From the IMG/VR virus record IMGVR_UViG_3300023175_001523, positions 1-37,093 of that record: 37,093 bases of DNA; one strand, written 5' to 3'. The notes beneath the pieces are model-generated. The model was not told the DNA's origin. It saw nothing but the letters and a program-made list of their open reading frames with translations, and made no database searches. Shown here piece after piece: positions 1 to 30,000 of the stretch. The position numbers were made by a program, and so were the translations under genes. How positions within the stretch are numbered: position 1 is the first letter of the stretch; each line of letters begins with the position of its first letter. The stretch is from a virus.

Positions 1-1117
1 CAAATCCTAAGTCAGTTAGGTATTGTTGTAGTTCTTTAATAGCATCTACTTCGTCTGCATCATTAGCAAGACCGCCTTTACCTGAACTAGCAAATGCTTC
101 TAGGCTACCTGCTGTTTCGCCGCCTTCATCGCCGCCTTCTTCGCCGCCTTCTTCGCCGCCTTCTTCGCCACCTTCTTCACCAGCTTCACTTGGTGGACGC
201 TCAACACCTACACCACCAACTGTGCCATAAGTAACATTATTTGGAATCTTACTCCAGTCTGGATTACCGTCGGCGTCTAGATATTCTTCAGGAATTTCAT
301 CACCGTTGTTGATTTGCGGTAAGTTTCCTTCTTCACCAGGTGCGTCTGCACTGTCAGTTCCTGTTGCAGTTGCGCCAGCAGCGGGAAGATCTGGAGCATT
401 TCTAATTGCTTGTCTTGCTGCCGCAGTGTTTGGTTCACTTAAAATGTTTCCGTCTATAAGTGCATTAATGTCTGCTATTACATTTCTTAATTCTTCTTGT
501 TCTGCTGCTGATAACGCTTCAGAAACAAATGCTTCTAATAGGTTGTATTCTTTTAAATAACCACGTAATGATGTTGGAACACTTTCGTTCATTCTTCCAA
601 TTAGGTCATTATATTTACGAATAAGTTCATCTAATTTTTGTGCGGCTGCATTACGATCTTGTTCGTTTGCTACTTCAAGTTCTGTGCCGTCACTTAATCT
701 AATCTTTCCGTCGTCGGTTGGAGTAGGCTCTGATGTATTTCTATTGTCTGGAGCTGCTGCTGTTGTAGCGCCACCATCTGCATCAGTGTTAGCCATGTAA
801 CTTGCATCACCTTGATCTTCTTCATCTGGATCGTACGGATTACCGTCAGCGTCTACTTCTTGAGCTCCACGTCCGTCACTGTGAGCAAGGAATGCTTGCA
901 AACGATCATCGTTCATGTAGTAAACTTTTACAACATCGTCTCTGCTATAGTTGTCACCACCGTTGCGTAAACCTGTAAAAAGTTTAAATGAATCGTCTCT
1001 TTTAATATTAAAATTAGTTAACGAACCAGTGTCTTGTACTCTACGTTCAGCTTTAATTTCAACTGCTTCGTTTAATTGTACACTGTCAAGTGTGTTTAGT
1101 AGTTTTCTAAAATCCAT
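1..1117 (-). CDS. Candidate packaged virion protein with acidic Gly/Glu linker (C-terminus outside window)
   Basis: The reading frame starts at an ATG at 1117-1115 behind a GGAGG ribosome site and runs off the left edge, so only the first ~372 residues are seen. The N-terminus is MDFRKLLNTLDSVQLNE followed by Ala, which contains the L-x-E cleavage tripeptide of T4-type prohead proteases. The middle is low-complexity and rich in Asp, Ala and Pro. A run of GGEE repeats (12-base DNA repeats) follows, and the last visible residues (DAIKELQQYLTDLGF) resemble the start of a peptidoglycan-binding repeat. The start overlaps the stop of the upstream gene (TGATG), so it belongs to the operon extending to 6458. 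Function unknown. A virion-associated, possibly cell-wall-binding protein is an inference from the leader and the final helix. Confidence 0.75.
   Translation of the reverse strand, partial: MDFRKLLNTLDSVQLNEAVEIKAERRVQDTGSLTNFNIKRDDSFKLFTGLRNGGDNYSRDDVVKVYYMNDDRLQAFLAHSDGRGAQEVDADGNPYDPDEEDQGDASYMANTDADGGATTAAAPDNRNTSEPTPTDDGKIRLSDGTELEVANEQDRNAAAQKLDELIRKYNDLIGRMNESVPTSLRGYLKEYNLLEAFVSEALSAAEQEELRNVIADINALIDGNILSEPNTAAARQAIRNAPDLPAAGATATGTDSADAPGEEGNLPQINNGDEIPEEYLDADGNPDWSKIPNNVTYGTVGGVGVERPPSEAGEEGGEEGGEEGGEEGGDEGGETAGSLEAFASSGKGGLANDADEVDAIKELQQYLTDLGF
119..178. repeat. Five tandem 12-base repeats encoding Gly-Gly-Glu-Glu linker
   Basis: Five consecutive 12-base units of the form gccgccttcttc, the first and last with one mismatch, lie inside the partial gene at the left edge. 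On the coding strand they encode GGEE or GGDE units, which form a flexible acidic linker. They are much more GC-rich than their surroundings. Copy number in such arrays can change by slippage. Confidence 0.85.
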
Positions 1118-1470
1118 CACTTACCTCCGGTAACTTTTTGAAGTTTGTGTGTTAGACCTTCTTTGTAAGCAACCATATCGTCTGGAGTAATTTGCGCCTC
1201 TGGTTGATCACTAAATTTTGTTTCGTAGTCTAAATGATGATATACTGAACTAACATAGTCACCTGCTTTGGTAATCTTTGATTGTACCCAACCTTCTAAG
1301 CCTTCTTGTTCGGATACATTTTTAAGCATATCGTGCAGTTTAATAGCATATTTTGCTATTTTGTATAGCTCTGCACGAGCCATCTGTACTTCGTGATCTG
1401 CTTCGGCTCTACCTGCTAGGTCTGCAAGGCCTTCGTTGACACGAGAATTTTTGAATTCTGATTTGCGCAT
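1117..1470 (-). CDS. Small helical phage protein of unknown function, candidate packaged protein
   Basis: A 117-residue, mostly helical, charged protein with no membrane segment. It starts MRKSEFKNSRVNE followed by Gly, close to the leader pattern of its operon neighbours but with Val in place of Leu/Ile before x-E. The core (about residues 28-95) includes ARAELYKIAKYAIKLHDML and EGLEGWVQSKITKAGDYV. From memory, similar helical segments occur in other T4-like marine phages, sometimes inside larger structural proteins, but I cannot name a family. A late promoter (1508-1514) lies 38 bases upstream of the ATG and a GGAG ribosome site precedes it, so this is the first gene of a late sub-operon that continues into the left-edge gene. 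Confidence 0.8.
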   Translation of the reverse strand: MRKSEFKNSRVNEGLADLAGRAEADHEVQMARAELYKIAKYAIKLHDMLKNVSEQEGLEGWVQSKITKAGDYVSSVYHHLDYETKFSDQPEAQITPDDMVAYKEGLTHKLQKVTGGK

Positions 1471-1507: not shown

Positions 1508-1514
1508 TATTTAT
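1508..1514 (-). promoter_or_regulatory. T4-like late promoter core ATAAATA
   Basis: The minus strand reads GATAAATAC inside the 3' end of the preceding gene. By T4 late-promoter spacing, transcription would start near 1502 and give a 32-base leader before the ATG at 1470. Confidence 0.6.
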
Positions 1515-1915
1515 CTCTTAATCGTCTTACCGCCCATTAAATTGTCATCAACATCTAATGCGTTTGCGGCAGTTCCGTCTGCGTTTTTATGTTGTGGTGC
1601 TACAGGAATACCATTTTTATCTTTTTTGATTTTTTGTTTTGCTGCTGGAGGATTAGCAACTGAAGCAATATTACCTGCACTTGTGCCGCCTGCTGATGCA
1701 TCTTCATTAATACCTGCTTGCACCATTGTTATTGCTTGTTTAATATAACGTGGTCTTACGTGTAGTTCTTGTTCAACTTTAGAAATAATTTCATCTTCAG
1801 GCATACCTTGTTTTAGTAATTCCTTAACCATTGGTATAACATCGTTTTTCATATCTGCTGGTTTGTCTGAACTAAACCAATCTAAAAAGCCTTCATCTAA
1901 TTCTTGTATTTTCAT
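1511..1915 (-). CDS. Small protein with LxE leader, candidate packaged protein
   Basis: A 134-residue protein starting MKIQELDE followed by GFLDWFSS. The leader carries two overlapping candidate protease sites (I-Q-E at 3-5, L-D-E at 6-8). Residues ~22-70 are predicted helical (MVKELLKQGMPEDEIISKV and RPRYIKQAITMVQAG), like a small helix-turn-helix or UBA-like bundle. The C-terminal half is low-complexity, rich in Ala, Asn and Lys. The ATG overlaps the stop of the 553-residue gene by ATGA, so translation is probably coupled. No enzymatic motif is visible. Function unknown. Packaging into the head is inferred from the leader shared with its neighbours. Confidence 0.8.
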   Translation of the reverse strand: MKIQELDEGFLDWFSSDKPADMKNDVIPMVKELLKQGMPEDEIISKVEQELHVRPRYIKQAITMVQAGINEDASAGGTSAGNIASVANPPAAKQKIKKDKNGIPVAPQHKNADGTAANALDVDDNLMGGKTIKR

Positions 1916-3573
1916 TTGTTTCTCCCTGCTTTCATATTAGCGCACCAGTGATACATTTTAGCACGTTCGCCGCTGCTATTACTTGCCTTTTTCCTTAGTT
2001 CACTTACACTTCCATCACAACTAGCACCTGAACGGGCTACACGCCCTGGACGACTGTTACCACTAACTTTACCGTCAGCAAAGTTTTCGCTTATCATTGC
2101 TAGGAATTCTTTGTGTTTAGATCTAAAGTATTTCTTTGCTTTCTCTGGATCTTCTTTATACATTCTATACCATGCTTTGAATTGAGGATCGCTGTTAAGA
2201 GCTGTCTTAACCCAATCAATAATTGATTCGTCTACTGGCTCTTGCATGTGCTGTTGTATGTTTTTAGCAGTACGTTCAAATTTATGATCTTTGTGTTTAA
2301 AGCCATAACCGCCTGCTGCTTCCCAACTGTTAATATTTACACCATAATCGTCAATTAGTATGTTTGGTGTACCATCTTGTTGTGTAGCATACTTTGCTTT
2401 ATCGTGTGTAATAATAACATCATCTGGTGGAAAGAAACTAAGATTTTTTTCAACCCATTCTCTTTTATGAGGTTCTGAATTAGGATCGTCAGGCAGAGGT
2501 GAACTAAGAATTTTGTATGATCCTTTTACTTCTTTAATTAAATTAAGTAATTGTTTAGCATTATTTGTTAATGGTAAGTTAAGCCAAAAATCTTCAGTTT
2601 GTCTTATTTTGTCAAGTGCCTGCGGAATTTGTTCTTTGCCAATATCGGACCAGTGATCTACATTCATTAGTTTAGCCCAAGAGCCAAAGAAATCTGCAAG
2701 TACACCATCCATATCAACATAGATTTCTGTAGCACTTGCTATTTCGCCTAATGCTTCTTTGATTTCTACAAACTTTAAATGATCATAGTATAATGGATCT
2801 TCTTTGATATGATCCATAGCAATTTTTAATGCTAGTTTACGATCATTAGTGTGTTCCATTTCTACTTCAACACCCATTGCTAATTGTCTTTGTAGTTCAC
2901 TGTCACTAATACTTTCGTTTTTATTGCGTCCTTGACAGTGGGCACGTTGACTAAAGCCTCTTGGGTTATTACAGTTAATAGAGCGTTTATATTTTTCACT
3001 CCATTTCTCGTCAATTATTTGTACAGACTCTGCAAACAACTGCGGATTTTTATCAGCCCAACGTCTTAATAAAACGCCTGCCATTGCATTTGCTTCATTC
3101 TCGTCTGGACTTCCGTCTGAACCGTCTAATTCTTCCTTTTCTTCACGCTGTTTACAATGTACTAATTCGTGTGCAAGTGTACGCATTGTGTCCATTTGAT
3201 GCCTACGGTCGTAACTTACAGTAATGCTTTCATCGTATGTATCAAAGTATCCAAACGTTCTGTCAAGCTCTTTGCCTGTCATCGTAATTTTAGGAAACTT
3301 TTGTATACCTAATGTGTCTACACAAAAACGTGCAAATTGATTATAGTTGTCTCTAGTTCTTTGATCAACACTTTCTTCAAGAACGCCTAAGTTAAACAAT
3401 ACGTTTGTGCTTTTGCCTTTGACTTTAGTGCTTAGTGTAGGAGGATGTCCATCTTTATCTACATTAAAACCAAACTTTTTTGCTTCAATAGGAATTTGTC
3501 CTACACCTACATCAACTGTAGTGTTAACACCTTTTACTATGCGACCATCTTCGTTTAGTTCATGTAATCTCAT
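1912..3573 (-). CDS. Multidomain HExxH metallopeptidase - Cys module - HAD 5'(3')-nucleotidase fusion, candidate packaged enzyme
   Basis: A 553-residue modular protein. The leader MRLHELNE contains L-H-E and L-N-E. An N-terminal domain of unknown function (~10-65) is followed by a zinc peptidase-like domain (~70-180) with HELVH at 135-139 and a downstream ENEANAMAG as the likely third ligand region. A Cys module (C201 and C213, pattern CNNPRGFSQRAHC) follows. A helical segment ~225-270 (MGVEVEMEHT, ALKIAMDH) resembles a small phage domain I recall as DUF5661. Next is a HAD-type domain (~282-440) starting VDMDGVLADF, as in 5'(3')-deoxyribonucleotidases, with LIDDYGVNINSW as the later acidic motif. 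The last module has C519 and C544 (SGASCDGSV, YHWCANMKAGR). Several L/I-x-E tripeptides fall at domain borders (LEE ~65-67, IDE ~187-189, LGE ~275-277). Both neighbours overlap by ATGA. Domain calls are motif-based; substrates are unknown. Confidence 0.8.
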   Translation of the reverse strand: MRLHELNEDGRIVKGVNTTVDVGVGQIPIEAKKFGFNVDKDGHPPTLSTKVKGKSTNVLFNLGVLEESVDQRTRDNYNQFARFCVDTLGIQKFPKITMTGKELDRTFGYFDTYDESITVSYDRRHQMDTMRTLAHELVHCKQREEKEELDGSDGSPDENEANAMAGVLLRRWADKNPQLFAESVQIIDEKWSEKYKRSINCNNPRGFSQRAHCQGRNKNESISDSELQRQLAMGVEVEMEHTNDRKLALKIAMDHIKEDPLYYDHLKFVEIKEALGEIASATEIYVDMDGVLADFFGSWAKLMNVDHWSDIGKEQIPQALDKIRQTEDFWLNLPLTNNAKQLLNLIKEVKGSYKILSSPLPDDPNSEPHKREWVEKNLSFFPPDDVIITHDKAKYATQQDGTPNILIDDYGVNINSWEAAGGYGFKHKDHKFERTAKNIQQHMQEPVDESIIDWVKTALNSDPQFKAWYRMYKEDPEKAKKYFRSKHKEFLAMISENFADGKVSGNSRPGRVARSGASCDGSVSELRKKASNSSGERAKMYHWCANMKAGRNK

Positions 3574-3863
3574 CTGTTTCTTCTAAATCTATTTCTAAGT
3601 CTCGGATTTTGAGTTTGCATACTTTTTTGTATGTCTTTGTTTACTTGGTTTGGATCTATTCCTGCGGCTCTACTTAAACTGTCGGCATCGGCTTGGGTTT
3701 GATCAACCTTGTCCTGCATACCTTTGCCTACAACATTCATTCTGTCTACCATACCTGAATCAGTTGTTTTACTTTTTAGCAATGCGGCTTGTTGTTGTTT
3801 TCTTAGAGCTACCTGTCTAGCTGTCATTGTAGGTGCATCTTCTAATATTTCATACATTTTCAT
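3570..3863 (-). CDS. Small basic Gln-rich protein with LxE leader
   Basis: A 97-residue protein beginning MKMYEILE then DAP, where I-L-E fits a T4-type prohead protease site after residue 8. The remainder is hydrophilic, rich in Gln, Lys and Asp, probably helical (RQVALRKQQQAALLKSK), and ends in a strongly basic tail (RLRNRFRRNR) that could contact DNA. It overlaps both neighbouring genes by ATGA. No known family recognised. In size, charge and leader it resembles T4-style internal head proteins, but there is no obvious sequence similarity to them. Confidence 0.75.
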   Translation of the reverse strand: MKMYEILEDAPTMTARQVALRKQQQAALLKSKTTDSGMVDRMNVVGKGMQDKVDQTQADADSLSRAAGIDPNQVNKDIQKSMQTQNPRLRNRFRRNR

Positions 3864-4072
3864 TTCTTGCGTCCTCTAAACTGCTCTGGAAAGCCTAACC
3901 AATATGGACGACTAAACCAAAGTTCGAACCATTCTTTATCACCTGCTCTAATATTGCGAGCCTTTTCAATTTCTCTTTTTTCTGTACCAGTGTGCGAAAT
4001 GTTTTCTTGGTACGGTGTAAGACCTTTGAACTCGTTAATACCTGCAAGTCTGCGTAAATCGTCTAGGTCCAT
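3860..4072 (-). CDS. Small protein with LxE leader and aromatic C-terminal motif
   Basis: A 70-residue protein starting MDLDDLRRLAGINE then FKG, with I-N-E as candidate protease site at 12-14. The C-terminal part has a dense aromatic stretch (KEWFELWFSRPYWLGFPEQF). I recall similar EWF-LWFS-PY stretches in other marine phages, but no function. There is no membrane segment. The ATG sits two bases after the TAA of the nucleotidyltransferase gene. Function unknown. Confidence 0.7.
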   Translation of the reverse strand: MDLDDLRRLAGINEFKGLTPYQENISHTGTEKREIEKARNIRAGDKEWFELWFSRPYWLGFPEQFRGRKK

Positions 4073-4073
4073 A

Positions 4074-5561
4074 TTAACCTCTAGATTGATTTAAACTAGC
4101 CATAATGTCAGCTGGAACTTCATTTGCACTTACTTCAACACGATCAGTTCTGCTATTATGTTTCCAATAAGTTTCTTTGGATTGTCCATTTGCGTCTTTA
4201 GTAACTTCTAACTTATATATACCGGCAGTGTAAACATCTTTTGTAGAACCGTCTGCGTTTTTACTTCTATTAACATCGCCAAAACCGTATTGCGCATCGC
4301 CAGCATCTAACGAGTTGCCATCCTTGTCAAAACGCTTTGTAACTTTTAATCCGCCGTTATTATATTTTACTGTAATAACTCCGGTCTTAAGATTATGTGT
4401 TTGCGATATACCGCCCATCGCAGGTGAACGCCATTGCGAAGGCTTACCGGCAGCGTCCCATAAAAATGTACCGTCGGCGTTACTAAGAGTCATTCCTAGT
4501 TTTGTTTGTCTTGCTATAGCACCATCACCTAAATCGCCTTCTTGCTGCGGCATCTCTGGAAACTGTGGAACTGGCACCGGGTCAATCTTTTCAGGACCTG
4601 CATCTGCCTCACGCATTTTCTTTCTTTTGCTTTTACACGCTTCTAATGCATGTACAATATGTTCGCTTGAGATTTGGAAACGGCTTCCTCTTGCAGTAAG
4701 TTCCTTGCCTACAATCATTTTAAGCCATTCTGCAAGTTGATCAATATCGTCAGTTGCAGCAATCTTATCAGCAATTAAACTAATAATGTGCGAGCGTAAA
4801 CGTCCCTGATCTATAACTAAATTGCTTTCGTTAGTTTTGTTATTATGTTGTTTCCAGGCAGTAGCATATAATACTTCTTCCCAGTCAGCACCATAACGCT
4901 TTTTAAATTCTTCTTTGCGATCTTTAATCCACTTCTCCATACCAGGAGGTGCGTCTTCTGCGACCACTTCTTCTTTATCTTTGATTCCCATACCTTGTCT
5001 AACTGCTGCAAACATTTCCTCAGCAACTTCTGGGCGAGGTACACCGTTAGTAAATGATTCTAGATCATTGTCAGCAGCCGCTTGACGCATTTTACTTGCA
5101 CTCATACCTTCTGCACCATCTGCATCTGGATCACGCTCGCCTGCACTTACAACTTCAATTGAATCAAAAGTATAGCCAATCTTGCCTGACTTATCTGGCT
5201 TACCATTATAATCGTTAAATAATTTTTTAAAGCCTTCTACTCTATCACTTCCTGCTACATAGATAATATCAGTATAACCTAGATTTTGTAGCATAACCAT
5301 CATGTCCATTGGTGTACGAACGTCTGGATGACCTATAGTAATTTCAGGAAAGAAGAATTTTGCATAGCGCAATTTATCAGTAAAGGGTAAAGGATCTGTT
5401 TTAGGTTTTTGTGACTGACTAAGAAACACATAGTGATCACCGTTGTGTGACTTTAGTGCTTCCACTAACTTTTGGTGACCTATAGTAGGAGGATTCATAC
5501 GTCCAAATGCTACTACTGCTGTTCGCTTCTGTGGCGCTTCAAAGAGTTGTCTAAGTTTCAC
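4074..5561 (-). CDS. Cytidylyltransferase/NMN-adenylyltransferase-like fusion protein, candidate packaged enzyme
   Basis: A 495-residue protein starting at GTG (5561-5559) overlapping the upstream stop as GTGA, with an AAGGGG ribosome site. After the leader MKLRQLFE (L-F-E, then Ala), residues ~12-190 form a nucleotidyltransferase fold. GRMNPPTIGH (20-29) carries the HxGH-type nucleotide-binding motif in the form TIGH, and SASKMR (154-159) matches the second phosphate-binding motif. This family joins a nucleotide to a phosphorylated substrate such as NMN, but the substrate cannot be read here. A linker ~203-245 (PPGMEKWIKDRKEEFKKRYG, then WEEVLYATAWK) looks like a separate small phage module. 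Helical residues ~250-325 and a repetitive beta-rich C-terminus (~340-490, many DANG/NADGS turns) follow. The first His of HxGH is Thr, as in some NMNAT-like and phage members. Confidence 0.8.
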   Translation of the reverse strand: MKLRQLFEAPQKRTAVVAFGRMNPPTIGHQKLVEALKSHNGDHYVFLSQSQKPKTDPLPFTDKLRYAKFFFPEITIGHPDVRTPMDMMVMLQNLGYTDIIYVAGSDRVEGFKKLFNDYNGKPDKSGKIGYTFDSIEVVSAGERDPDADGAEGMSASKMRQAAADNDLESFTNGVPRPEVAEEMFAAVRQGMGIKDKEEVVAEDAPPGMEKWIKDRKEEFKKRYGADWEEVLYATAWKQHNNKTNESNLVIDQGRLRSHIISLIADKIAATDDIDQLAEWLKMIVGKELTARGSRFQISSEHIVHALEACKSKRKKMREADAGPEKIDPVPVPQFPEMPQQEGDLGDGAIARQTKLGMTLSNADGTFLWDAAGKPSQWRSPAMGGISQTHNLKTGVITVKYNNGGLKVTKRFDKDGNSLDAGDAQYGFGDVNRSKNADGSTKDVYTAGIYKLEVTKDANGQSKETYWKHNSRTDRVEVSANEVPADIMASLNQSRG

Positions 5562-5894: not shown

Positions 5895-6458
5895 TTACCA
5901 CTTCCTACATGACCAGTAACGTGCCTTCCAACGAGGTCCCGGATTATCGCAATTATGTCTTGCTCTAAAACTTCTACGTCTTGCTGGATTAGATTTTTTA
6001 ATACGCATTTTTTTGTCACCAAAGTTTACTTTAACAACATTACCGTTTGGCTTGCGTACATATACTTTAAACTTTTTAACATCGCCTCTTGTAGGTTTGC
6101 CTAGTTTAACTTTACGACCACGGTATTCTGCTTCGTCTAGTTCGTCATCTTCGTTAAACCACATAACTCCATATTCTTCAAAGAAGTCGTCACCGTCATA
6201 TGTTTCTTCATCTATTTCTTCTAAGTCAGTTGATACTTCGATATCAAAATCTTCATAACCTTCGTTAAACATATGATCTGCTAAACGATTTACAAATTCA
6301 CTTACAATATCTTCGCCAAGTGCTTGTGGTAACGGAATGTGTATAACAGTAGCATCTTGCTCTGTTTCAAAAATTTCATGATTTGGAAAGACACTTTCGT
6401 TTAAGCCTTCGCTCAATACATCTTGTTTTTCCATTACTATTCTTACAAAATGTTCCAT
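5895..6458 (-). CDS. Acidic protein with C-terminal paired-Cys module
   Basis: A 187-residue protein with an AGGA ribosome site before the ATG. The N-terminus is longer than in its neighbours but includes VLSEGLNE (two L-x-E tripeptides, ~residues 14-21). The centre is very acidic (EEIDEETYDGDDFFEEYG). Residues ~128-187 form a basic module: a beta-rich stretch KFKVYVRKPNGNVVKVNFGD, then RRRSFRARHNC and a terminal ARYWSCRKW, with the Cys pair at 170 and 184. From memory this module is widespread as a C-terminal add-on in T4-like phages and some large viruses. I do not know a demonstrated function; metal or nucleic-acid binding is a guess. First gene of the leader-bearing operon. Confidence 0.8.
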   Translation of the reverse strand: MEHFVRIVMEKQDVLSEGLNESVFPNHEIFETEQDATVIHIPLPQALGEDIVSEFVNRLADHMFNEGYEDFDIEVSTDLEEIDEETYDGDDFFEEYGVMWFNEDDELDEAEYRGRKVKLGKPTRGDVKKFKVYVRKPNGNVVKVNFGDKKMRIKKSNPARRRSFRARHNCDNPGPRWKARYWSCRKW

Positions 6459-7563: not shown

Positions 7564-8225
7564 GCATTCTTGTTCAGACACACAACTTTATTAATTGAGC
7601 GTATATTGTCAACCATTAGTAGTCTTAACAATGTAATAACCCTGTCGGATTTAGCATAAAAGTACAAATCATCCAATCGTGTCATGCCTTCATTTAAATA
7701 TTCTTCAAGTGTATTACCTAATTTAACGTGTTCCCCGTTATGTGCTAATAACCATTGTGCTGCATCTAAAGGCAATTTGCCACGCAAATACACTCTATAT
7801 TCATAATCTATAGGTCTTTTTAAATATGCATACCCTGGTTCTAAAGGATTTAATCTTTCTTCTGGTTCCCACCATTCGAGTGACTGTCTTAGTCTAGTTG
7901 AAAGATCGTATAACCAAGGTTTATAGGTTGAGTATATTGTTAATTGTTTAAATTGTACTCTTAATCTATATATTCTATGCTTTTTAAGTTCATTGTATAT
8001 TACCTTAGCATCTTCAAAACTTGCTTGACTAATACTCATAGTCCTAAATCTGTGAAGTTGTAAAGGTTCACCGTTTTCGTAAGAAAGCTGAAGGCCATCC
8101 AGCAACTTTCCTACGTGATGTAAACGATTATTTCTGAACTCATTTGCTAAGTCATTTCTACATAATAATTTGTAGGCATACTTATTGTAAAAGAGTTTTT
8201 CAGTTGTTTGCTTCCTCAAATGCAT
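7560..8225 (-). CDS. Hypothetical basic/aromatic phage protein
   Basis: A 221-residue protein from the ATG at 8225 (MHLRKQTTEKLFYNKYAYKL), which follows an AAAGGA purine run. A TTG five codons upstream is less likely. It is rich in Arg, Leu, Tyr and Trp with no membrane segment or catalytic motif. Segments such as YLKRPIDYEYRVYLRGKLPL and a central WWEPEERLNPLEPGY look compact and globular. It overlaps the 3' end of the ClpA-like gene by 26 bases, so its translation is probably coupled to it. I do not recognise the family. Confidence 0.75.
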   Translation of the reverse strand: MHLRKQTTEKLFYNKYAYKLLCRNDLANEFRNNRLHHVGKLLDGLQLSYENGEPLQLHRFRTMSISQASFEDAKVIYNELKKHRIYRLRVQFKQLTIYSTYKPWLYDLSTRLRQSLEWWEPEERLNPLEPGYAYLKRPIDYEYRVYLRGKLPLDAAQWLLAHNGEHVKLGNTLEEYLNEGMTRLDDLYFYAKSDRVITLLRLLMVDNIRSINKVVCLNKNA

Positions 8226-10449
8226 TTTCCTTTGCTTCAACTATTAGATCGTTGTCTACAATTTTGATCTTAACGTGACCACCATTTTTAAGACTACCAA
8301 ATAGTAATTCTTTAGACAAAGGACGTTTAATTTCATTATCAATTACACGTTGCAAAGGACGAGCCCCCATCTTGCTGTCAAAGCCTTTTTCTACTAAGTA
8401 ATCAATGGCACTGTCATCAATTTCAAACTTAACACTACGATCTTTGATCATCGATTTAAGTTCAACTAAGAACTTGCCCACAATCTTGATCATTACTTCT
8501 TTACTTAGTTTTGCAAAAGTAATAGTTGCATCTAGCCTGTTACGGAATTCTGGAGCAAAAAAGTTTTTAAGGTCTGTATCTTCGTAATCTTTTTCGTTAT
8601 CTTCATCAAAGCCAATGCTATTTTTCTCTGCTTCTTTTGCGCCTAAGTTTGTTGTAAGGATAAGAACACTGTTACGTGCATCTGCTTCCTTACCATTTGA
8701 TCCTGTAATCTTACCATTGTCCATAATTTGTAGTAAGATTTGAGAAACATCTGGATGTGCTTTTTCAATCTCATCTAATAGCAATACACACCCTGGATTT
8801 TCTTGTAATTTTTCAATTAGTAAACCACTAGTATCTTCGTGTCCTACGTATCCCGGAGGAGAACCAATCAACTTAGCAACTGAATGCTTCTCTTGATATT
8901 CACTCATATCAAAACGCACAAGTTTTACACCAAGTTCGTTTGCTAGTTGTTTTGCTGTTTCTGTTTTACCTGTACCTGTTGGACCCATAAACACAAAACT
9001 ACCAATCGGTTTAGTTTCATCTTTAAGTCCTGCTTGTGCAATTAAAATCTTATCAACAAGTTTTTCAATTGCTTCGTCTTGTCCAAACACAACACCTTTT
9101 AGGTTATGTTCAAGGTCTTTAAGTCCTGCTGATTCTTTTTGTGCAATCTTATCTACTGGCAGATTTACACTTCTTGCAAGCTCAAACTGAATGTTATCTA
9201 CATCAACAACACGTTCTTCTGCATCTGTGTCTTTCAATTTAAATCTTGCACACGCCTGATCAACTAGATCAATTGCTTTATCAGGAAGTTTTTTATCTGC
9301 TTGATACTTAACACTTAGATCTACTGCTGATTCAATTGCGTCACTTGTAATTTTTGCACCGTGATATGTTTCATAATATTTTGCAATACCTTTTAGGATA
9401 TCAATACTTACATCTCTGCTAGGCTCGTCAACTGTAATACGTTGGAATCGACGCATAAGGGCACGATCCTTTTCAAAGTGTTTACGGTATTCTTCCCAAG
9501 TAGTTGAAGCAACTACTTTAATGTCACCTTTACTTAATGCTGGCTTTAACATATTAGCAAGGTCGTTTGAGTTACTGCCACCGCCTGCACCAGCACCGTT
9601 CATCATGTGTGCTTCGTCAATAAACATAATTGCTTTGCCTTTTTTCTTAAGAGCTGCAATAACTAACTTTAAACGTTCTTCAAAGTCACCACGGTATTTA
9701 GATCCAGCAAGCATGCCGCCGATATCTAGATTAAACACTTCGTACTCTTGTAGAAATTTAGGAACATTATTATTAACAATATTCCATGCAAGTCCTTCTG
9801 CAATAGCAGTTTTACCTACACCTGGATCACCAACAAGGATAGCATTGTTTTTATTGCGTCGGCCTAATGCTAGTGCAATGTTTTCTAGTTCGGTACTACG
9901 TCCAATTACAGGATCAATTTTATTACGTTTTACTTCGTCATTTAGATTGTCTGTAAATGCACGAAGTGCTTTAAGTGCTGCGCCACTAATTTCTTCTTCT
10001 TCGTATGCTGCATCTAGTTCATTGTTAACATAGTCTGCAAAAGAGTCTTTGTTAACGTTTGCTTCTTCTAAGTAGTAGTATGCATAGGATTTTAGTTCAG
10101 CTAAAATACTTAATAGCACATCTGATAATTCAATCTCAGGACGACCTGCAAATAGTACTTGTGTAAATGCTCGATTTAATACACGTTCTACTGCTTGTGT
10201 CTTTTTAGGTTTATATTTGCCGTCTGTTTCAATTACAAGATCAGTACACTTGTCTTTAAGATAATGTTCTAAATTCTTTTTAATAAAATCAGGATCTACG
10301 CCATAACCTTTTAACAAATTGTAAAAAGGTTCAGAACAGAGCATAGCAAATAACAAATGCTCAACGGTCACGTATTCGTGCTTTAGTCTTTTAGCATCCT
10401 TAATTGATTTTTCGAATACTGCCTGTAGTTCTTTGCTTGGTTCAACCAT
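8200..10449 (-). CDS. clpA: ClpA-type AAA+ unfoldase
   Basis: A 749-residue class I Clp ATPase, close to the usual ClpA length (E. coli ~758). An N domain (~1-145, the ClpS/adaptor-binding region in ClpA) is followed by the first AAA+ module with Walker A GDPGVGKT (207-214) and Walker B MFIDEAH (~275-281). The second has Walker A GPTGTGKT (489-496), Walker B LLLDEIEKAH, pore-loop GYVG (~533-536) and arginine-finger region FAPEFRNRLD. Residues 612-614 read IGF, preceded by KNS, at the position of the ClpP-docking IGL/IGF loop of ClpA/ClpX. No long ClpB-type middle domain is present. The protein should unfold substrates and could feed them to host ClpP; no clpP or clpS is in the window. It overlaps the deformylase gene by 8 bases. 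The reading frame is intact. Confidence 0.93.
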   Translation of the reverse strand: MVEPSKELQAVFEKSIKDAKRLKHEYVTVEHLLFAMLCSEPFYNLLKGYGVDPDFIKKNLEHYLKDKCTDLVIETDGKYKPKKTQAVERVLNRAFTQVLFAGRPEIELSDVLLSILAELKSYAYYYLEEANVNKDSFADYVNNELDAAYEEEEISGAALKALRAFTDNLNDEVKRNKIDPVIGRSTELENIALALGRRNKNNAILVGDPGVGKTAIAEGLAWNIVNNNVPKFLQEYEVFNLDIGGMLAGSKYRGDFEERLKLVIAALKKKGKAIMFIDEAHMMNGAGAGGGSNSNDLANMLKPALSKGDIKVVASTTWEEYRKHFEKDRALMRRFQRITVDEPSRDVSIDILKGIAKYYETYHGAKITSDAIESAVDLSVKYQADKKLPDKAIDLVDQACARFKLKDTDAEERVVDVDNIQFELARSVNLPVDKIAQKESAGLKDLEHNLKGVVFGQDEAIEKLVDKILIAQAGLKDETKPIGSFVFMGPTGTGKTETAKQLANELGVKLVRFDMSEYQEKHSVAKLIGSPPGYVGHEDTSGLLIEKLQENPGCVLLLDEIEKAHPDVSQILLQIMDNGKITGSNGKEADARNSVLILTTNLGAKEAEKNSIGFDEDNEKDYEDTDLKNFFAPEFRNRLDATITFAKLSKEVMIKIVGKFLVELKSMIKDRSVKFEIDDSAIDYLVEKGFDSKMGARPLQRVIDNEIKRPLSKELLFGSLKNGGHVKIKIVDNDLIVEAKENAFEEANN

Positions 10450-10942
10450 GTACTAATTTCCTCTTTTTTAGTTTTTTCTTTGCCATATCTAGTTTAAGTC
10501 TACTTACTCTATCAGTAAACTCAATTCCCTGCAGATGATCATACTCGTGCAGGAAACATCTCGCATCTATATCATATAACTCTATTGTACATTCTTTAGC
10601 AGAAATGTCAAGATATTTGGCAACCAACCCTTTTGGTCTTGATATGTTTAAAAACAGTCCAGGATGACTTAAACAGCCTTCTGGCATTAATTCTTTATCT
10701 TCTGTAACTTTTTCAATTACAGGATTAATAACTGCAAATGGTGTTTTATCAGATAATAGGAAAGGTTTCATAACAAAAATTTGTGCATCTAATCCTATTT
10801 GATTTGCACTAAGTCCAATGCCACCTTCAACAAGCATTAAGCCAATCATTTCTTTAGAAATAAAGTCCGCATCTAGTTTGTCAAAATTAAATTTACTTAC
10901 TTGCTTTTGTAACCACGGATCTGGCGACTTAACTAATTTCAT
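10442..10942 (-). CDS. def: Peptide deformylase
   Basis: A 166-residue deformylase of usual length. All three signature motifs are visible: GIGLSANQIG (motif 1, with Ser for the common Ala), EGCLS (motif 2, with the metal-binding Cys) and LHEYDHLQG (motif 3, HExxH). The enzyme removes the N-formyl group from nascent proteins; phage versions are known from marine myoviruses. The active-site residues look intact. The C-terminus is a basic helix (LDMAKKKLKKRK). It overlaps the upstream dnaJ-like gene by 14 bases and the downstream clpA by 8, giving a coupled dnaJ-def-clpA order. Confidence 0.95.
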   Translation of the reverse strand: MKLVKSPDPWLQKQVSKFNFDKLDADFISKEMIGLMLVEGGIGLSANQIGLDAQIFVMKPFLLSDKTPFAVINPVIEKVTEDKELMPEGCLSHPGLFLNISRPKGLVAKYLDISAKECTIELYDIDARCFLHEYDHLQGIEFTDRVSRLKLDMAKKKLKKRKLVHG

Positions 10943-11747
10943 CTCTTATTTCCTTTATCCTTTTTATTTGGTTGTCATTTAACTTTGGTGTATCAAGTTT
11001 AATTTCAACTAACAGCGATCCACCGTTTATTCCTTCATCGGTAACTCTTAACTTTGTTCCATTTTTAATACCTGCCGGAATGCTTAACATTATACTTTTT
11101 CCCGACAATGTAATAATTTCATGTCTAGTACCTATTATAGCATCTAGACTGTTTAAGAGCAAGACACAACTTAAATCATTATGATGTCTTTTAAACCTTT
11201 TATGTGGCTTAACATGTACTGTTACATATAAATTTCCTGCTGGCAAATTCTTATTTGAATTATCTCCTAAGCCTTTAAATGAAACTTGCTGTCCACTTTC
11301 AATCCCATTAGGTATACGTATATCTGCTACCTTTTCGTCGCCGCTTGGTAACTTATACATTAATCTTTTTTCAATTACACCTAGTACTTCTTCTAGTTCT
11401 ATATGTAGGTTTAAATTAATATCTCTATTTCTTTGCGCTCGGCGATTTCTATATACTCGCTGACCATTCATAAACAAGTCTTCAAAACCTGGAGGAAATC
11501 CAAATCCTTCAAAAGGATTGCCACCATCAAAACTTGCACTATTAAAATTAAATTGTGGTTGTGGATTATCATACTCCGCACGTTTTTGCGGATCTTTTAA
11601 GGTGCTATACGCTTCGTTAATTTTTTTAAATTCTTCTTCATTACCGCCCCTGTCAGGATGGTGTCGCATACTTTGTTTTTTATATGCTTTGCGAATATCT
11701 GCATCTGATGCAGATTTATTAACACCTAGAATAGAATAATAGTCCAT
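10929..11747 (-). CDS. DnaJ/CbpA-like J-domain co-chaperone
   Basis: A 272-residue type II J-protein. The J domain occupies ~1-65 with MRHHPDRGG (the HPD that stimulates Hsp70 ATPase). A Gly/Phe-rich segment (~70-100: FNFNSASFDGGNPFEGFGF) follows, then two C-terminal substrate-binding domains (~115-272, with LPAGNLYVTVHVKPHKRFKR typical of CTD-I). The zinc-finger repeats of classical DnaJ are absent, as in CbpA/DnaJB. It probably recruits host DnaK, since no hsp70 is seen here. First gene of the dnaJ-def-clpA block. Confidence 0.93.
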   Translation of the reverse strand: MDYYSILGVNKSASDADIRKAYKKQSMRHHPDRGGNEEEFKKINEAYSTLKDPQKRAEYDNPQPQFNFNSASFDGGNPFEGFGFPPGFEDLFMNGQRVYRNRRAQRNRDINLNLHIELEEVLGVIEKRLMYKLPSGDEKVADIRIPNGIESGQQVSFKGLGDNSNKNLPAGNLYVTVHVKPHKRFKRHHNDLSCVLLLNSLDAIIGTRHEIITLSGKSIMLSIPAGIKNGTKLRVTDEGINGGSLLVEIKLDTPKLNDNQIKRIKEIRDEIS

Positions 11748-25892: not shown

Positions 25893-27091
25893 TACCAGTT
25901 GTTAGTCATTGCTACTCTATACCAAATTGCACTTACGCCATCGTAATCTGCTGTACAGTGATACAAATATCTAGTAGATGCAGTATCTGTAAGTCCAATT
26001 CTTAGTTCTCCAGCAGTATCACCTTGTGAACCAATTGGTGATGTAGGATCTTGTGCTAGTTGAATATTTAATGATCCTGATAATGCAAGATTACTAAATT
26101 GTGCTTCTTCAGTACTTGTATTAACTAATACAGTTTCGTCTAAGTTATTTGCAATAACGTTACCTTTAAACGCCGGTGCTTCAACTGTATCAATAAAATT
26201 TAAGTTAGTTACTTGTGCTTGATTAAAATCTACCTGACCAGTAAATTGTAAAACAGTATCATCTCTAATAGTTGTACCGCTGCCACCGTCTGTGATATGA
26301 AGACCTAGTCCTGTTATTTCTAGGTCACCGTTTTGTGCTGTAAGCAATAATGCCCCGTCTCCAATAATTTGTACAGTTCCTGATATTACATCAAAACTTC
26401 CGCCTGCTGATTCGCCAGTGTTATTAACAAAAAAGTTTCCTAAGAAATCATTACGTCTAGAGAATACATTAAGTCCATCAAATGATGTATCAACACCAAT
26501 TACTAAAGGATCTCCTTGTAATAGATCTGATAAACCTATATAACCTGCATCATTAACAAACTGTGTTACATTTACAGGTTTGTTTAATATTTCGCTATAG
26601 TTAATATTACTAGGACGCCAAGCACCTGATTGGTACTTTAAGTATTTTAATTCTGTAGCACCTGTAGTAATTACATCTTGTAATGCGTTAATACTGGTTT
26701 GTGAAAGATCAACATCTGTTTGGTCTGTTGGTTCGTATCTACCTGCCTCAGCATTAAACACTAGTATCTGTCCATCTTCTGGATCTAAATTAGATACATC
26801 AGTAAGACCTTTACTTGTTGTTGGTATAGTTGGTTTGTTTGTTAAGTCGTTATAACTACCACTAAATGATATTGGTACATTATCTAGATCGTTGTAATCA
26901 CCTGTAACTGCAACAGTTGATAAGTTCTGTTGGTTTACAGTTAGACTTAAAACATCTAAGTTACCTTGTACTTGTATAGAACTAGCATTAACAATGCCAC
27001 TTCCTTGTAAGTTTAAATTATCGCCAACTGGTAGTTCTTTAAATTTATTACCGTCGTCGGTATCGATAATAAGTGGAAATCTATTTGCCAT
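25892..27091 (-). CDS. Tail fibre protein with YNDLxNKP motifs
   Basis: A 399-residue beta-rich protein. It lacks the DGTGD anchor and starts MANRFPLIIDTDDGNKFKEL. It has GDYNDLDNVP and SGSYNDLTNKPTIP (~65-90), motifs common in long fibres, and repeats of LTVNQQNLS/ITGLGLHITDG type. The C-terminus (DTASTRYLYHCTADYDGVSA, then WYRV) resembles C-terminal fibre caps. The start overlaps the stop of the 2808-residue gene by one base. Probably a distal fibre or fibre tip. Confidence 0.82.
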   Translation of the reverse strand: MANRFPLIIDTDDGNKFKELPVGDNLNLQGSGIVNASSIQVQGNLDVLSLTVNQQNLSTVAVTGDYNDLDNVPISFSGSYNDLTNKPTIPTTSKGLTDVSNLDPEDGQILVFNAEAGRYEPTDQTDVDLSQTSINALQDVITTGATELKYLKYQSGAWRPSNINYSEILNKPVNVTQFVNDAGYIGLSDLLQGDPLVIGVDTSFDGLNVFSRRNDFLGNFFVNNTGESAGGSFDVISGTVQIIGDGALLLTAQNGDLEITGLGLHITDGGSGTTIRDDTVLQFTGQVDFNQAQVTNLNFIDTVEAPAFKGNVIANNLDETVLVNTSTEEAQFSNLALSGSLNIQLAQDPTSPIGSQGDTAGELRIGLTDTASTRYLYHCTADYDGVSAIWYRVAMTNNW

Positions 27092-30000
27092 TATACTCTT
27101 CCTACAACTATTTCAATGACGCCTTTATCGGCATCTGGTTTATTTTCTAATGCTTTACCAATAACTTGTCCATATCCTGGTTGGTTATTAACAATAGCAT
27201 ATCCTGGGATTGCACTAGTTACTAGCAAGTCACCTTTTTCAACTTTACCAATGACTTTACATGGAACACGACCTGTTAGTGCTACGCCTATTACATTGTC
27301 GCCTTCTAATGCACTGTTCATTAAGTGTGCTGGATTTGTTGTTACAACACCTGCAACTCTATGATCACCTTTTTTGCTTGTTAGTGTTACTTCAAACTCT
27401 CCACCAAATACTAGTACCGTACCTGGATCGTAAGGTGCATCACCTAAGTAGTTCTCTGCTAAGTCAGCGTATTGTGCTTGTGTAGCAGTACCATTAAACA
27501 CGTTTGCATAGATTGTGTTAAATCTTGCTGTGTTGCTACCTAGTGAATGTGTGCCGTTACCATCTGGTAAGAAGCCACTGTCTAATCTACCATTAACACC
27601 AAAACTTAGTCCACCGTTAATAGTTAAGTTATCAGTTGCTTGATCAGCAAATGTCATATTGCCGTTAACTGTTAAGTTTCCTGTAACTGTTAAATCAGTA
27701 CCAACTGACATACTAGTACCAGCAGTAATACTTCCAGTAGCAGAGATGTTACCATTTTGCTCTAGTGCAGTGTTTGTTACTTTAGTTCTTACGCCACCAC
27801 CTGTTACAAGTAGAATAGTGTCTGCGCCTGCATCAGTAAATCCACTGTTGTAGTTCGCATCACCACCAATACTAATACCAGTTGTTGCAGTAGCATCGCC
27901 TTGTGATTCAATTACACTTTCAATAAAGTTTGTGTACATCCAAGGTGCAGCAACAAATCCTTTTGTAACCCATTCTGAAATAAATTCAGTTGCACCACTC
28001 TGAGCATTACTTTCAATAAACTCGTCTAGGCTACCTGATCCGCCATCGTTGTTTAATTGTCCATTAACATTAATACTACCTGGGAATTCTGCTTGTACAT
28101 CAGCAGTACCTGCAGAACTGAATATAGTTCCGCCACCTGGTGTTTTAACTGATATAGTAGTACTTGCTAGTGTAAGGGCATCATATCCGCCAATCTTATA
28201 ACCAGCAGCATCAATTTCGCCGTCACTGTTTCTTCTAGCAATAGTGTTACCGCCAGTACCGGTTGAAACTTGTGTAGTAGCATATACACTACCATCTACT
28301 TCAACTTTAATTAATGCATAACCTTCAAATGTATCATTACTTACTGATGTTGGAACACTGTTTGCTCCAAGGTCAACGCCATCTGTTGCGTTAATTAAAT
28401 TTGAACCTTGTGCAAATGTTCCTGTAACATTTGTTAGATACAATGTATTACTTAAATACACATCACCTTGTACAGTACCAGTTGCTGCACCTTGTGTAAT
28501 ACTTTTACCATCTTCAATAGTAATTGGTCCAGTTGTTACAATCTTTGTACATGCAGTTGTTGTCCATTCTGCATTGTTAAAGTCTTTATCTTCTAAACCT
28601 TCACCATACTTAACTACGTCACTGTAGTCAACTGCTTCAGGATCGCCTGTTCCTGTAGTTTGTCTACCGTATACTTGATATTGATCAACGTCTTGCATTT
28701 CTGCAAATACTAAGCCGTTGTCTACAATCCTAATGTAACCATTTTTAGCTTCAAAGTTTTCGTCACTAAATTTAGCGAGACCTAATGCAGATTGTACTTG
28801 CCAAGCAGGGCTTGCTATTGTCCCCCAACCTGATGTACCACTGTCTTCGTCAAATGTATCTGCATTTTGCATTGCAAGTTTTGACTGTGAAATAGCCGCT
28901 GCTGAATTAACATCAGCATTCATAATAGTGTCGTCTTCGTATTGGAAGTCTACAGTTGTGCCTGCCGCAGTTCTGTTTACAGTCCAGTTAATAACACTAC
29001 TTGTTGCTTCAGAAGCGTTTGCAATTTCATCAATAGGTCCATCAATTACTGTAGCACTTGCTGATTCACCTGGCTTATCATATAGTGTTTCGCCTATATT
29101 AAATGTTCCACTAGTAGCAGTGTATGTTACTACTTGAATGTTACCTTCAATTGGATCGACAATACTTTCGATATCAACAATAGTTCCTGTTTTAGTTCCT
29201 GGTGCTGCGTTACCAATAGTATCGCCTACACTCCAAGTGCCGCCCGAAACTAATGTTGTATACAATCTCTTCTGTCCAGTAAACACAATTAGATCATCTG
29301 CCGCTGGATTATTGAGTTCAACGTTTCTTAAATTCTCTAGTTCATCGTATGAAGAAACTTGTGTGTCTACATAGTTTTTGTTTGTTGCCGCAGTACCATC
29401 ACTACCTGGAAGTGCCAAGTTAGTGATCTGGTTTGACCCCATATCAATATCTGCTTCCATAGCACTTGCACCATCTAATGGAAGGAAGCCTGGGCCAATT
29501 CTGTTACCGCTAGGCGATGCTAAAATTTGAGATCCGCCAGTAATGCTATAACCTAATACACGGTTAATATAGCCACTTACTGCTTTTTCTGTTGGTACTG
29601 CTTGTGCAGAGTTATCACTAAATGAATCGTCTGCTGAGAATTCATTAATTGTAACACCACGTTTAAAGCCTAATGAGTTAGCATTTGTTAAACCAATTTC
29701 ACCTGCGAATTCAATATCACCTGTTGCCTGGTCAACACTAAAATACTTACCAACTCTAAAGAAACCAAATTGGTCAGTACTTGCCCAGAACACACGCCCC
29801 TTACGTCTTTCCCAAACTTGAGCTGCTGTTGCTGTTGGAGCATCTGTATATGATTCTGCTAATGGTAATTCTGGATCACCTAAAATAACGTTTGGATAGT
29901 TACTAGTATTAAATCCACCTGTACCAATTTGTGTAAAGTCATGCCCTGTTGCACGACATAGTGAAATAGCAATGGTAATTTCAGCAGTTGCACCTGATTG

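What the first reader, a model, noticed from the sequence alone, without database searches (positions are those of the whole stretch)
1912..3573. Five-module protein joining an HExxH peptidase, a HAD nucleotidase and two Cys modules, with LxE at joints
Seen: HELVH at ~135-139, VDMDGVLADF at ~285-294, paired Cys at 201/213 and 519/544, and LEE, IDE and LGE tripeptides at three domain borders. Inference: the protein may be a polyprotein separated by the prohead protease or by its own peptidase, releasing several effectors in one virion.
Basis: partly seen in the sequence, partly recalled or inferred. Interest (0 to 1): 0.7.

Follow-up and report, generated by a model that had tools for sequence, protein, structure and literature searches.

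The report
Phage cargo polyprotein with protease sites
A marine T4-like phage encodes one protein made of several unrelated parts joined by short protease-site motifs; comparison with relatives suggests it is packed into the virus head, cut into separate proteins there and injected into the host.

Summary
The ORF is real: window 1912-3573, minus strand, 553 aa. These bound an N-terminal targeting-like peptide, a 58-aa module, a HELVH zincin, a Cys+DUF5661 piece, an NT5C-type 5'(3')-deoxyribonucleotidase, a helical piece and a basic Cys tail. In 64 dereplicated relatives the modules are reshuffled, yet the joints keep [LIV]xE (HAD is followed by 22 different partners, 19 with the motif), while HAD cores are nearly free of it (10 seen, 85 expected; free-standing homologues 23 versus 18.6). 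Modules split off as separate genes gain their own M[KR]...LxE start. AlphaFold puts all these sites in low-confidence linkers. T4 gp21 cuts after L/I-x-E; two relatives' records encode gp21 and gp23. In cultured cyanophage S-CREM2, published virion mass spectrometry detected proteins of the same LxE-start type, including an LxE-delimited multi-module protein and a cytidylyltransferase homologous to the target's neighbour. Best reading: a gp21-processed, head-packaged effector polyprotein. Cleavage itself is not shown. Self-cutting by the zincin is unlikely to be general: only 6 of 64 relatives carry it.

The parts
1912..3573 (-). Whole gene, 553 aa modular protein (stop at 1912-1914)
3550..3573 (-). 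Residues 1-8 MRLHELNE: capsid-targeting-like start ending in LNE
   Evidence: Glu8 kept in 40 of 41 aligned relatives; LxE before the N core in 38 of 44
3376..3549 (-). Residues 9-66: N module (GRIVKG...NVLFNLG), unknown function, ends VLE66 (LEE67 overlaps, 3373-3381)
   Evidence: no Pfam family over this stretch
3007..3375 (-). Residues 67-189: HELVH zincin-like peptidase module, ends IDE189
   Evidence: AlphaFold of the module alone pLDDT 87.5; fold neighbours IrrE, Wss1/SprT-type, selecase, Z 7-8; HExxH and a downstream Glu invariant in 6 of 6
2743..3006 (-). Residues 190-277: Cys module (Cys201/213) plus DUF5661, ends LGE277
   Evidence: DUF5661 38.1 bits; Cys module alone in cyanophage proteins
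2227..2742 (-). Residues 278-449: HAD 5'(3')-deoxyribonucleotidase module (NT5C), ends VDE449
   Evidence: structural match spans 279-445, Z about 15 to deoxyribonucleotidases
2086..2226 (-). Residues 450-496: short helical module, ends ISE496
   Evidence: also found right after the N module in L003 and L005
1915..2085 (-). Residues 497-553: basic C-terminal Cys module NFADG...MYHWCANM (Cys519/544)
   Evidence: stand-alone 66-68 aa ORFs with their own LxE start in L024, L072, L074
3550..3558 (-). LNE8 site
3373..3384 (-). VLE66 / LEE67 site
3007..3015 (-). IDE189 site
   Evidence: Glu in 7 of 8 aligned relatives
2743..2751 (-). LGE277 site
   Evidence: Glu in 40 of 50
2227..2235 (-). VDE449 site (V at P3, outside the strict L/I rule)
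   Evidence: Glu in 37 of 52
2086..2094 (-). ISE496 site
   Evidence: Glu in 58 of 62
2..1120 (-). Island neighbour, start MDFRKLLNTLDSVQLNE (runs off the window)
1117..1470 (-). Island neighbour, start MRKSEFKNSRVNE; holds the DHE..MAR..WVQSKITKA module that sits inside multi-module cyanophage proteins
1511..1915 (-). Island neighbour, start MKIQELDE; holds INE followed by DASAGGTSAGNIASV, like the gp23 N-terminus after its likely cut
3570..3863 (-). Island neighbour, start MKMYEILE
3860..4072 (-). Island neighbour, start MDLDDLRRLAGINE
4074..5561 (-). Island neighbour, cytidylyltransferase-type, start (GTG) ...KLRQLFE; homologue of virion-detected S-CREM2 gp154
5895..6458 (-). Island neighbour; its C-terminal module follows LDE and matches HTVC008M gp131, where it follows LEE

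Best explanation
The protein is a cargo polyprotein of the phage head. Its first eight residues act as a capsid-targeting sequence that takes it into the prohead core (inferred from sequence). The phage's gp21-type prohead protease then cuts after (L/I/V)-x-E at the linkers, removing the targeting peptide and separating about six pieces: N module, zincin, Cys+DUF5661, 5'(3')-deoxyribonucleotidase, helical piece and basic Cys tail (inferred; sites and linkers shown, cutting not shown). The pieces are ejected with the DNA and act early on host nucleotides, proteins or nucleic acids (inferred). Related phages reshuffle modules between such genes, the LxE motif being the fixed joint (shown by comparison).
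For: Joints: [LIV]xE within 12 aa before N 38/44 (shuffle 10.6), after N 38/45 (19.0), before HAD 48/53 (24.6), after HAD 43/53 (19.6), before zincin 6/6, before the Cys1 module 5/5, before the tail 34/52 (18.4). Flanks pooled 258 versus 96.2 expected; [LIV]xD 0.77x, [LIV]xK 0.57x, [AGST]xE 0.56x. HAD interior 10 versus 85.1, with [LIV]xD 1.85x and [FYWM]xE 1.32x; 10 free-standing NT5C homologues 23 versus 18.6. Partners: HAD followed by 22 types, 19 with the motif; N followed by 12, 11; HAD preceded by 11, 10; tail preceded by 22, 14. Split genes carry their own LxE start. Model: all border sites in segments under pLDDT 50; 10 of 12 LxE Glu there against 8 of 31 other Glu. Neighbour ORFs with M[KR]..[LIVM]xE starts: 79 of 393 within 2.5 kb, 11 of 546 farther. 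gp21 and gp23 genes in 2 of 12 relatives' records. T4 gp21 cuts after L/I-X-E, and a 10-aa targeting sequence suffices (PMC9026906 passages). S-CREM2 virion proteins gp6, 13, 14, 154, 156 begin this way; gp160 is LxE-delimited and multi-module; S-SM1 virions hold a cytidylyltransferase (PMC3037559).
Against: No peptide or cleavage data exist for this protein. The target has an LxE inside the HAD (IKE346-348; Glu in 2 of 66 relatives) in a confident helix, which must be protected if the enzyme is to survive. Only 34 of 52 tail joints have [LIV] at P3, and VDE449 lies outside the strict L/I rule. The S-CREM2 genome-wide association of LxE starts with virion detection is modest (7 of 26 detected versus 16 of 161 undetected non-structural CDS, P=0.023). 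gp21 and gp23 were not found in 10 of 12 records searched, including one of 204,772 bases, and the window is a fragment in which I found neither. None of the target's own modules is in S-CREM2. The relatives are related, so counts over them are not independent events.
Confidence: 0.75

Rival explanations
1. The protein is packaged but stays whole; the LxE joints are scars of fused genes that each once had an LxE-ended targeting start.
For: Split genes do carry such starts, so fusions would leave LxE at joints; gp21 needs accessible sites and nothing shows cutting.
Against: The joint Glu is kept while the residues around it and the partner change, and HAD interiors are purged of LxE; both suggest selection for cutting at joints and against cutting inside.
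Confidence: 0.12
2. The protein is cut by its own HELVH zincin, as proposed for polyvalent proteins.
For: A compact zincin-like fold with HExxH is present; PMC5512222 proposes autoprocessing by such domains.
Against: The module is in 6 of 64 relatives, yet LxE joints are general; it also occurs as a separate gene with its own LxE start in phage B23. T4 gp21 is the enzyme known to cut after L/I-x-E.
Confidence: 0.06
3. An ordinary cytosolic multi-enzyme fusion made during infection; LxE is just common in charged helical linkers.
For: NT5C-type nucleotidases occur as free-standing phage enzymes; the linkers are charged.
Against: [LIV]xE exceeds shuffles of the same flanks 2.7-fold while [LIV]xD, [LIV]xK and [AGST]xE do not; LxE starts cluster around the gene; the class is seen in virions of a cultured phage.
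Confidence: 0.05

Closest known systems
T4 internal proteins (IPI-III, Alt) with capsid targeting sequence, cut by gp21 after L/I-X-E
   Same: Short N-terminal peptide ending in LxE; packaged cargo; variable cargo behind a conserved start (PMC9026906, PMC3012670 passages)
   Different: T4 cargo proteins are single units trimmed at their ends; here one gene holds several domains with a site at each joint, and modules are exchanged between genes
Polyvalent proteins of phages and conjugative elements (Iyer et al. 2017, PMC5512222)
   Same: Several unrelated activities in one polypeptide, predicted to be injected with DNA; zincin domains; GNAT domains also named for polyvalent proteins
   Different: There release is ascribed mainly to embedded zincins; here the sites fit the prohead protease acting from outside, and most relatives lack the zincin
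T4 core proteins cut into fragments by gp21 (gp22, gp67); long propeptides of giant phages (SPN3US, phiKZ)
   Same: Many cuts in one head protein by the prohead protease
   Different: Those fragments are scaffold or propeptide, mostly lost from the head; here the pieces are folded domains
NT5C 5'(3')-deoxyribonucleotidase (HAD superfamily)
   Same: Pfam over cut-off, fold Z about 15, DMDGVLADF motif
   Different: The ten phage homologues read are mostly small free-standing proteins; here it is a module between LxE sites with an interior almost free of LxE

Membership tests
T4-type capsid-targeted internal protein | N-terminal targeting peptide of about 10 aa ending in L/I-x-E | tested here: met
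   MRLHELNE; Glu8 in 40 of 41 relatives. Sequence criterion only
T4-type capsid-targeted internal protein | Found inside the virion | not testable with these tools
   No virion data for this phage; the class is seen in S-CREM2 virions
T4-type capsid-targeted internal protein | Cut by gp21 | not testable with these tools
   Needs an experiment
T4-type capsid-targeted internal protein | Phage encodes an S77 (gp21-type) prohead protease | tested here: inconclusive
   Found in 2 of 12 relatives' records; the window is a 37-kb fragment
Polyvalent protein (Iyer 2017) | Two or more domains of disparate biochemical activity in one polypeptide | tested here: met
   Nucleotidase and zincin-like peptidase, with DUF5661 and Cys modules
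Polyvalent protein (Iyer 2017) | Injected with the DNA | not testable with these tools
   Needs an experiment
Polyvalent protein (Iyer 2017) | Contains domains from the catalogue of 131 | not tested
   The catalogue was not compared domain by domain
NT5C nucleotidase | Pfam NT5C above gathering score | tested here: met
   32.4 bits, cut-off 24.8
NT5C nucleotidase | HAD fold of 5'(3')-deoxyribonucleotidases | tested here: met
   Z about 15, rmsd 2.6-3.1 A over 151-156 residues
NT5C nucleotidase | Enzyme activity on dNMPs | not testable with these tools
   Motif I and LIDD present; no assay
Peptidase M78 / IrrE-like zincin | Pfam M78 above gathering score | tested here: not met
   14.8 bits, cut-off 22
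Peptidase M78 / IrrE-like zincin | HExxH plus downstream Glu | tested here: met
   Invariant in 6 of 6 relatives
Peptidase M78 / IrrE-like zincin | IrrE-like fold | tested here: inconclusive
   Z 7.8 to IrrE among other zincins up to 8.4

The most novel reading that the evidence does not exclude
Marine T4-like phages run a combinatorial cargo system: effector modules (nucleotidase, zincin, CCA/polyA-polymerase type, GNAT, basic Cys tails that may bind DNA) are cassettes bounded by gp21 sites, freely joined into one gene or split with their own targeting start, kept free of internal sites by selection, cut apart only inside the prohead and injected together. Some cargo also carries a copy of its own phage's mature gp23 N-terminus, perhaps to seat it on the inner shell.
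Probability: 0.55. Interest if true: 0.85.

Novelty: new variant of a known kind. Interest (0 to 1): 0.75.

Why it matters
It would show how abundant ocean phages deliver several early-acting enzymes per gene, give a simple sequence rule (LxE start, LxE joints, LxE-free cores) to predict virion cargo among many 'hypothetical' proteins, and offer a natural design for loading several proteins into a T4-like head. My searches of the paper library listed no paper that, by title and abstract start, describes it; subscription journals and preprints are mostly not held.

Tried and rejected
Own-zincin processing: rejected as the general mechanism (6 of 64 relatives). LxE count alone: weak (P=0.05). 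First BLAST-edge profile: blurred enrichment; replaced by core-based tests. Edge test with a control set of non-family ORFs: family 3.63x (1289 of 3342 edge positions), but the control also gave 2.40x (47 of 117). On inspection of the 25 control ORFs with most edges, many are neighbours of the same island carrying the same kinds of modules, so it is no clean control and I do not lean on it. First alignment for folding (A1) seemed to put fragments out of register (low identities) and was dropped for A2. PDB sequence search of the zincin found nothing useful. Association in S-CREM2: the window E6-25 gave 12 of 26 detected versus 40 of 161 undetected (P=0.025); controls at E30-36 (3 of 26 versus 21 of 161) and [LIVM]xD (1 of 26 versus 16 of 161) gave no association. 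In one search, 213 CDS of S-CREM2 were read; the record has 221 features, two of them tRNAs, and gp1-5 and gp18 were not read.

Full report
What is there. The ORF at 1912-3573 lies on the minus strand and encodes 553 aa. It sits in a run of minus-strand genes of a T4-like marine phage fragment: ClpA-type ATPase, clamp loader, tail-fibre-type genes, with PhoH on the plus strand. The record holding it is just the 37,093-base window. Named phages that share modules and whose regions I fetched are Kyanoviridae: S-SRM01, B23, S-CAM9, S-SM2, HTVC008M, Melnitz; in no record of that collection does one place cover 80% of it.

Anatomy. From homology edges, Pfam and models, the pieces are: 1-8 targeting-like peptide; 9-66 N module; 67-189 HELVH module; 190-277 Cys+DUF5661; 278-449 nucleotidase; 450-496 helical; 497-553 basic Cys tail. 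The nucleotidase matches 5'(3')-deoxyribonucleotidases at Z about 15 over residues 279-445, so the LxE sites at 275-277 and 447-449 lie just outside the fold. The HELVH module alone folds at pLDDT 87.5 into a compact zincin-like form; the best matches (Z 7-8.4) include IrrE, Wss1/SprT-type and selecase structures, a middling level. In the viral structure library the same fold is found stand-alone and inside proteins of 800-1,150 aa, among them a cytidyltransferase-like one.

The joints. Relatives were fetched from viral contigs (80 loci) and their ORFs cut into modules. Sixteen module orders appear, for example N-HAD-tail, N-zincin-HAD-tail, N-zincin-tail, HAD-Cys1-tail, N-DUF5661-HAD. In 64 dereplicated ORFs, [LIV]xE lies within 12 aa before N in 38 of 44, after N in 38 of 45, before HAD in 48 of 53, after HAD in 43 of 53, and before the tail in 34 of 52; shuffled flanks give 10.6, 19.0, 24.6, 19.6 and 18.4. 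For L/I alone the pooled flank ratio is 2.71 (184 versus 67.9), with V 2.68. The T4 rule in the literature is L/I-x-E; V, and M in some counts, is my extension. The joint does not depend on the neighbour: HAD is followed by 22 different partner segments, 19 with the motif.

Interiors. The HAD core shows 10 [LIV]xE against 85.1 expected in 54 copies, while [LIV]xD, [FYWM]xE and [KRDENQ]xE are not depleted. Ten free-standing NT5C homologues of other phages show 23 against 18.6. The N core shows 2 against 9.8, but there [LIV]xD is low too; the tail core is not depleted for [LIV]xE (11 against 3.7). In the target, joint Glu residues are kept in relatives (40/41, 32/47, 7/8, 40/50, 37/52, 58/62), whereas in-domain ones are not (IKE348 2/66, VSE525 12/67, IKE258 12/28); IKE273, four residues from LGE277, is kept in 42/55.

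Split genes. Where the gene is split, each part starts with its own short LxE-ended peptide: tail-only ORFs of 66-68 aa in L024, L072 and L074; HAD-first ORFs in L046, L051, L056, L059 and L060. Phage B23 has the zincin alone behind MNYKQFLRE. The LxE before NFADG in a fusion corresponds to the LxE of the start peptide in the separate gene.

Island. In the window, 8 of 9 ORFs between 2 and 6458 have an LxE ending between residues 6 and 18, against 6 of the other 33 listed ORFs. In the contigs, M[KR]...[LIVM]xE starts are found in 79 of 393 non-family ORFs within 2.5 kb of a family ORF and 11 of 546 farther away. ORFs there are mechanical calls, so noise is expected on both sides.

Protease. 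Two long relatives' records (165,479 and 145,946 bases) carry S77 gp21 and gp23; ten others, one of 204,772 bases, gave no match. Their gp23 proteins have LSE or LAE right before AAGTGATSAGNIAT or NATAGATSAGNVAT, the likely cut.

Virion evidence from a cultured phage. The published S-CREM2 virion proteome (PMC10665884, section 18 read) lists non-structural or hypothetical proteins. Read from the genome, gp6, gp13, gp14, gp154 and gp156 begin MK...LxE or MK..ISE; gp12, gp15 and gp155 have an LxE or MxE end a little later; gp160 (7 peptides) is an LxE-delimited multi-module Cys protein whose modules, compared by eye, also occur in S-SM2 SSM2_109 and S-SRM01 gp206. S-SRM01 gp206 carries the target's Cys1 and DUF5661 modules next to them. 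Detected gp136, gp165, gp174 and gp176 do not begin this way. Genome-wide, LxE at 6-12 is found in 7 of 26 detected and 16 of 161 undetected non-structural CDS (P=0.023); with M[KR] and all CDS, 7 of 52 versus 3 of 161 (P=0.0024). The cytidylyltransferase gp154 is a homologue of the target's neighbour (30% identity, E 3e-16), but none of the target's own modules is in S-CREM2. S-SM1 and S-SCSM1 virions also hold a cytidylyltransferase or NMNAT-like protein (PMC3037559 section 26; PMC9602691 passages).

Cargo in relatives includes PolyA_pol/CCA-type (L071, L036, L053), GNAT (L025) and cytidylyltransferase-like (L078) domains. Repair of tRNA or removal of nucleotide signals right at entry would fit, but that is inference.

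Judgement. Packaging and cutting by gp21 is the best explanation (0.75). What is shown: motifs, joints, linkers, split-gene starts, virion presence of the class in another phage. What is inferred: targeting, cutting and injection of this protein. It is a new variant of a known kind, between T4 internal proteins and polyvalent proteins.

Noticed in passing
window 1511-1915; L107, L092, L102, L084, L085: Cargo-type proteins carry, right after or close behind an LxE, a copy of their phage's mature gp23 N-terminus: S-SM2 gp23 PTNAVGNGGYTSSGGQTVAGFDP versus SSM2_108 PTNSVGNGGYTSAGGQTVAGYD; S-CREM2 gp23 GFTGAAAPGGPNAGFDP versus gp160 GFTGAAAPEGPVAGYDP; relatives' gp23 NATAGATSAGNVAT versus window DASAGGTSAGNIAS. 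The copy changes with the clade.
   Followed up: partly
L071, L036, L053: CCA-adding/polyA-polymerase-type domain joined to the HAD and Cys-tail modules by LxE, one protein of 1184 aa.
   Followed up: partly
L092:5141-7267, L093:4782-6872, L090:5995-7824, L102:1150-2622: In cultured cyanophages the gene slot between gp16 and gp17 holds a 490-708 aa multi-module protein, mostly Cys-rich, with LxE joints.
   Followed up: partly
window 8200-10449: ClpA/B-type ATPase (phrog_4871, E 7.5e-249) with deformylase-like (10442-10942) and J-domain-like (10929-11747) ORFs read beside it by eye: a chaperone-like set.
   Followed up: no
L103:4005-6614: S-CREM2 gp12, annotated Cas9/Csn1 and detected in virions, has a LRFASFMAE end near residue 25, so it may be head cargo too.
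   Followed up: no
window 27091-35517: A 2808-aa minus-strand ORF beside tail-fibre-type genes, not analysed.
   Followed up: no
G001 (L036 record, 204772 bases): Carries the family but gave no match to gp21 (PF03420) or gp23 (PF07068) models; incomplete record or divergent head genes.
   Followed up: no
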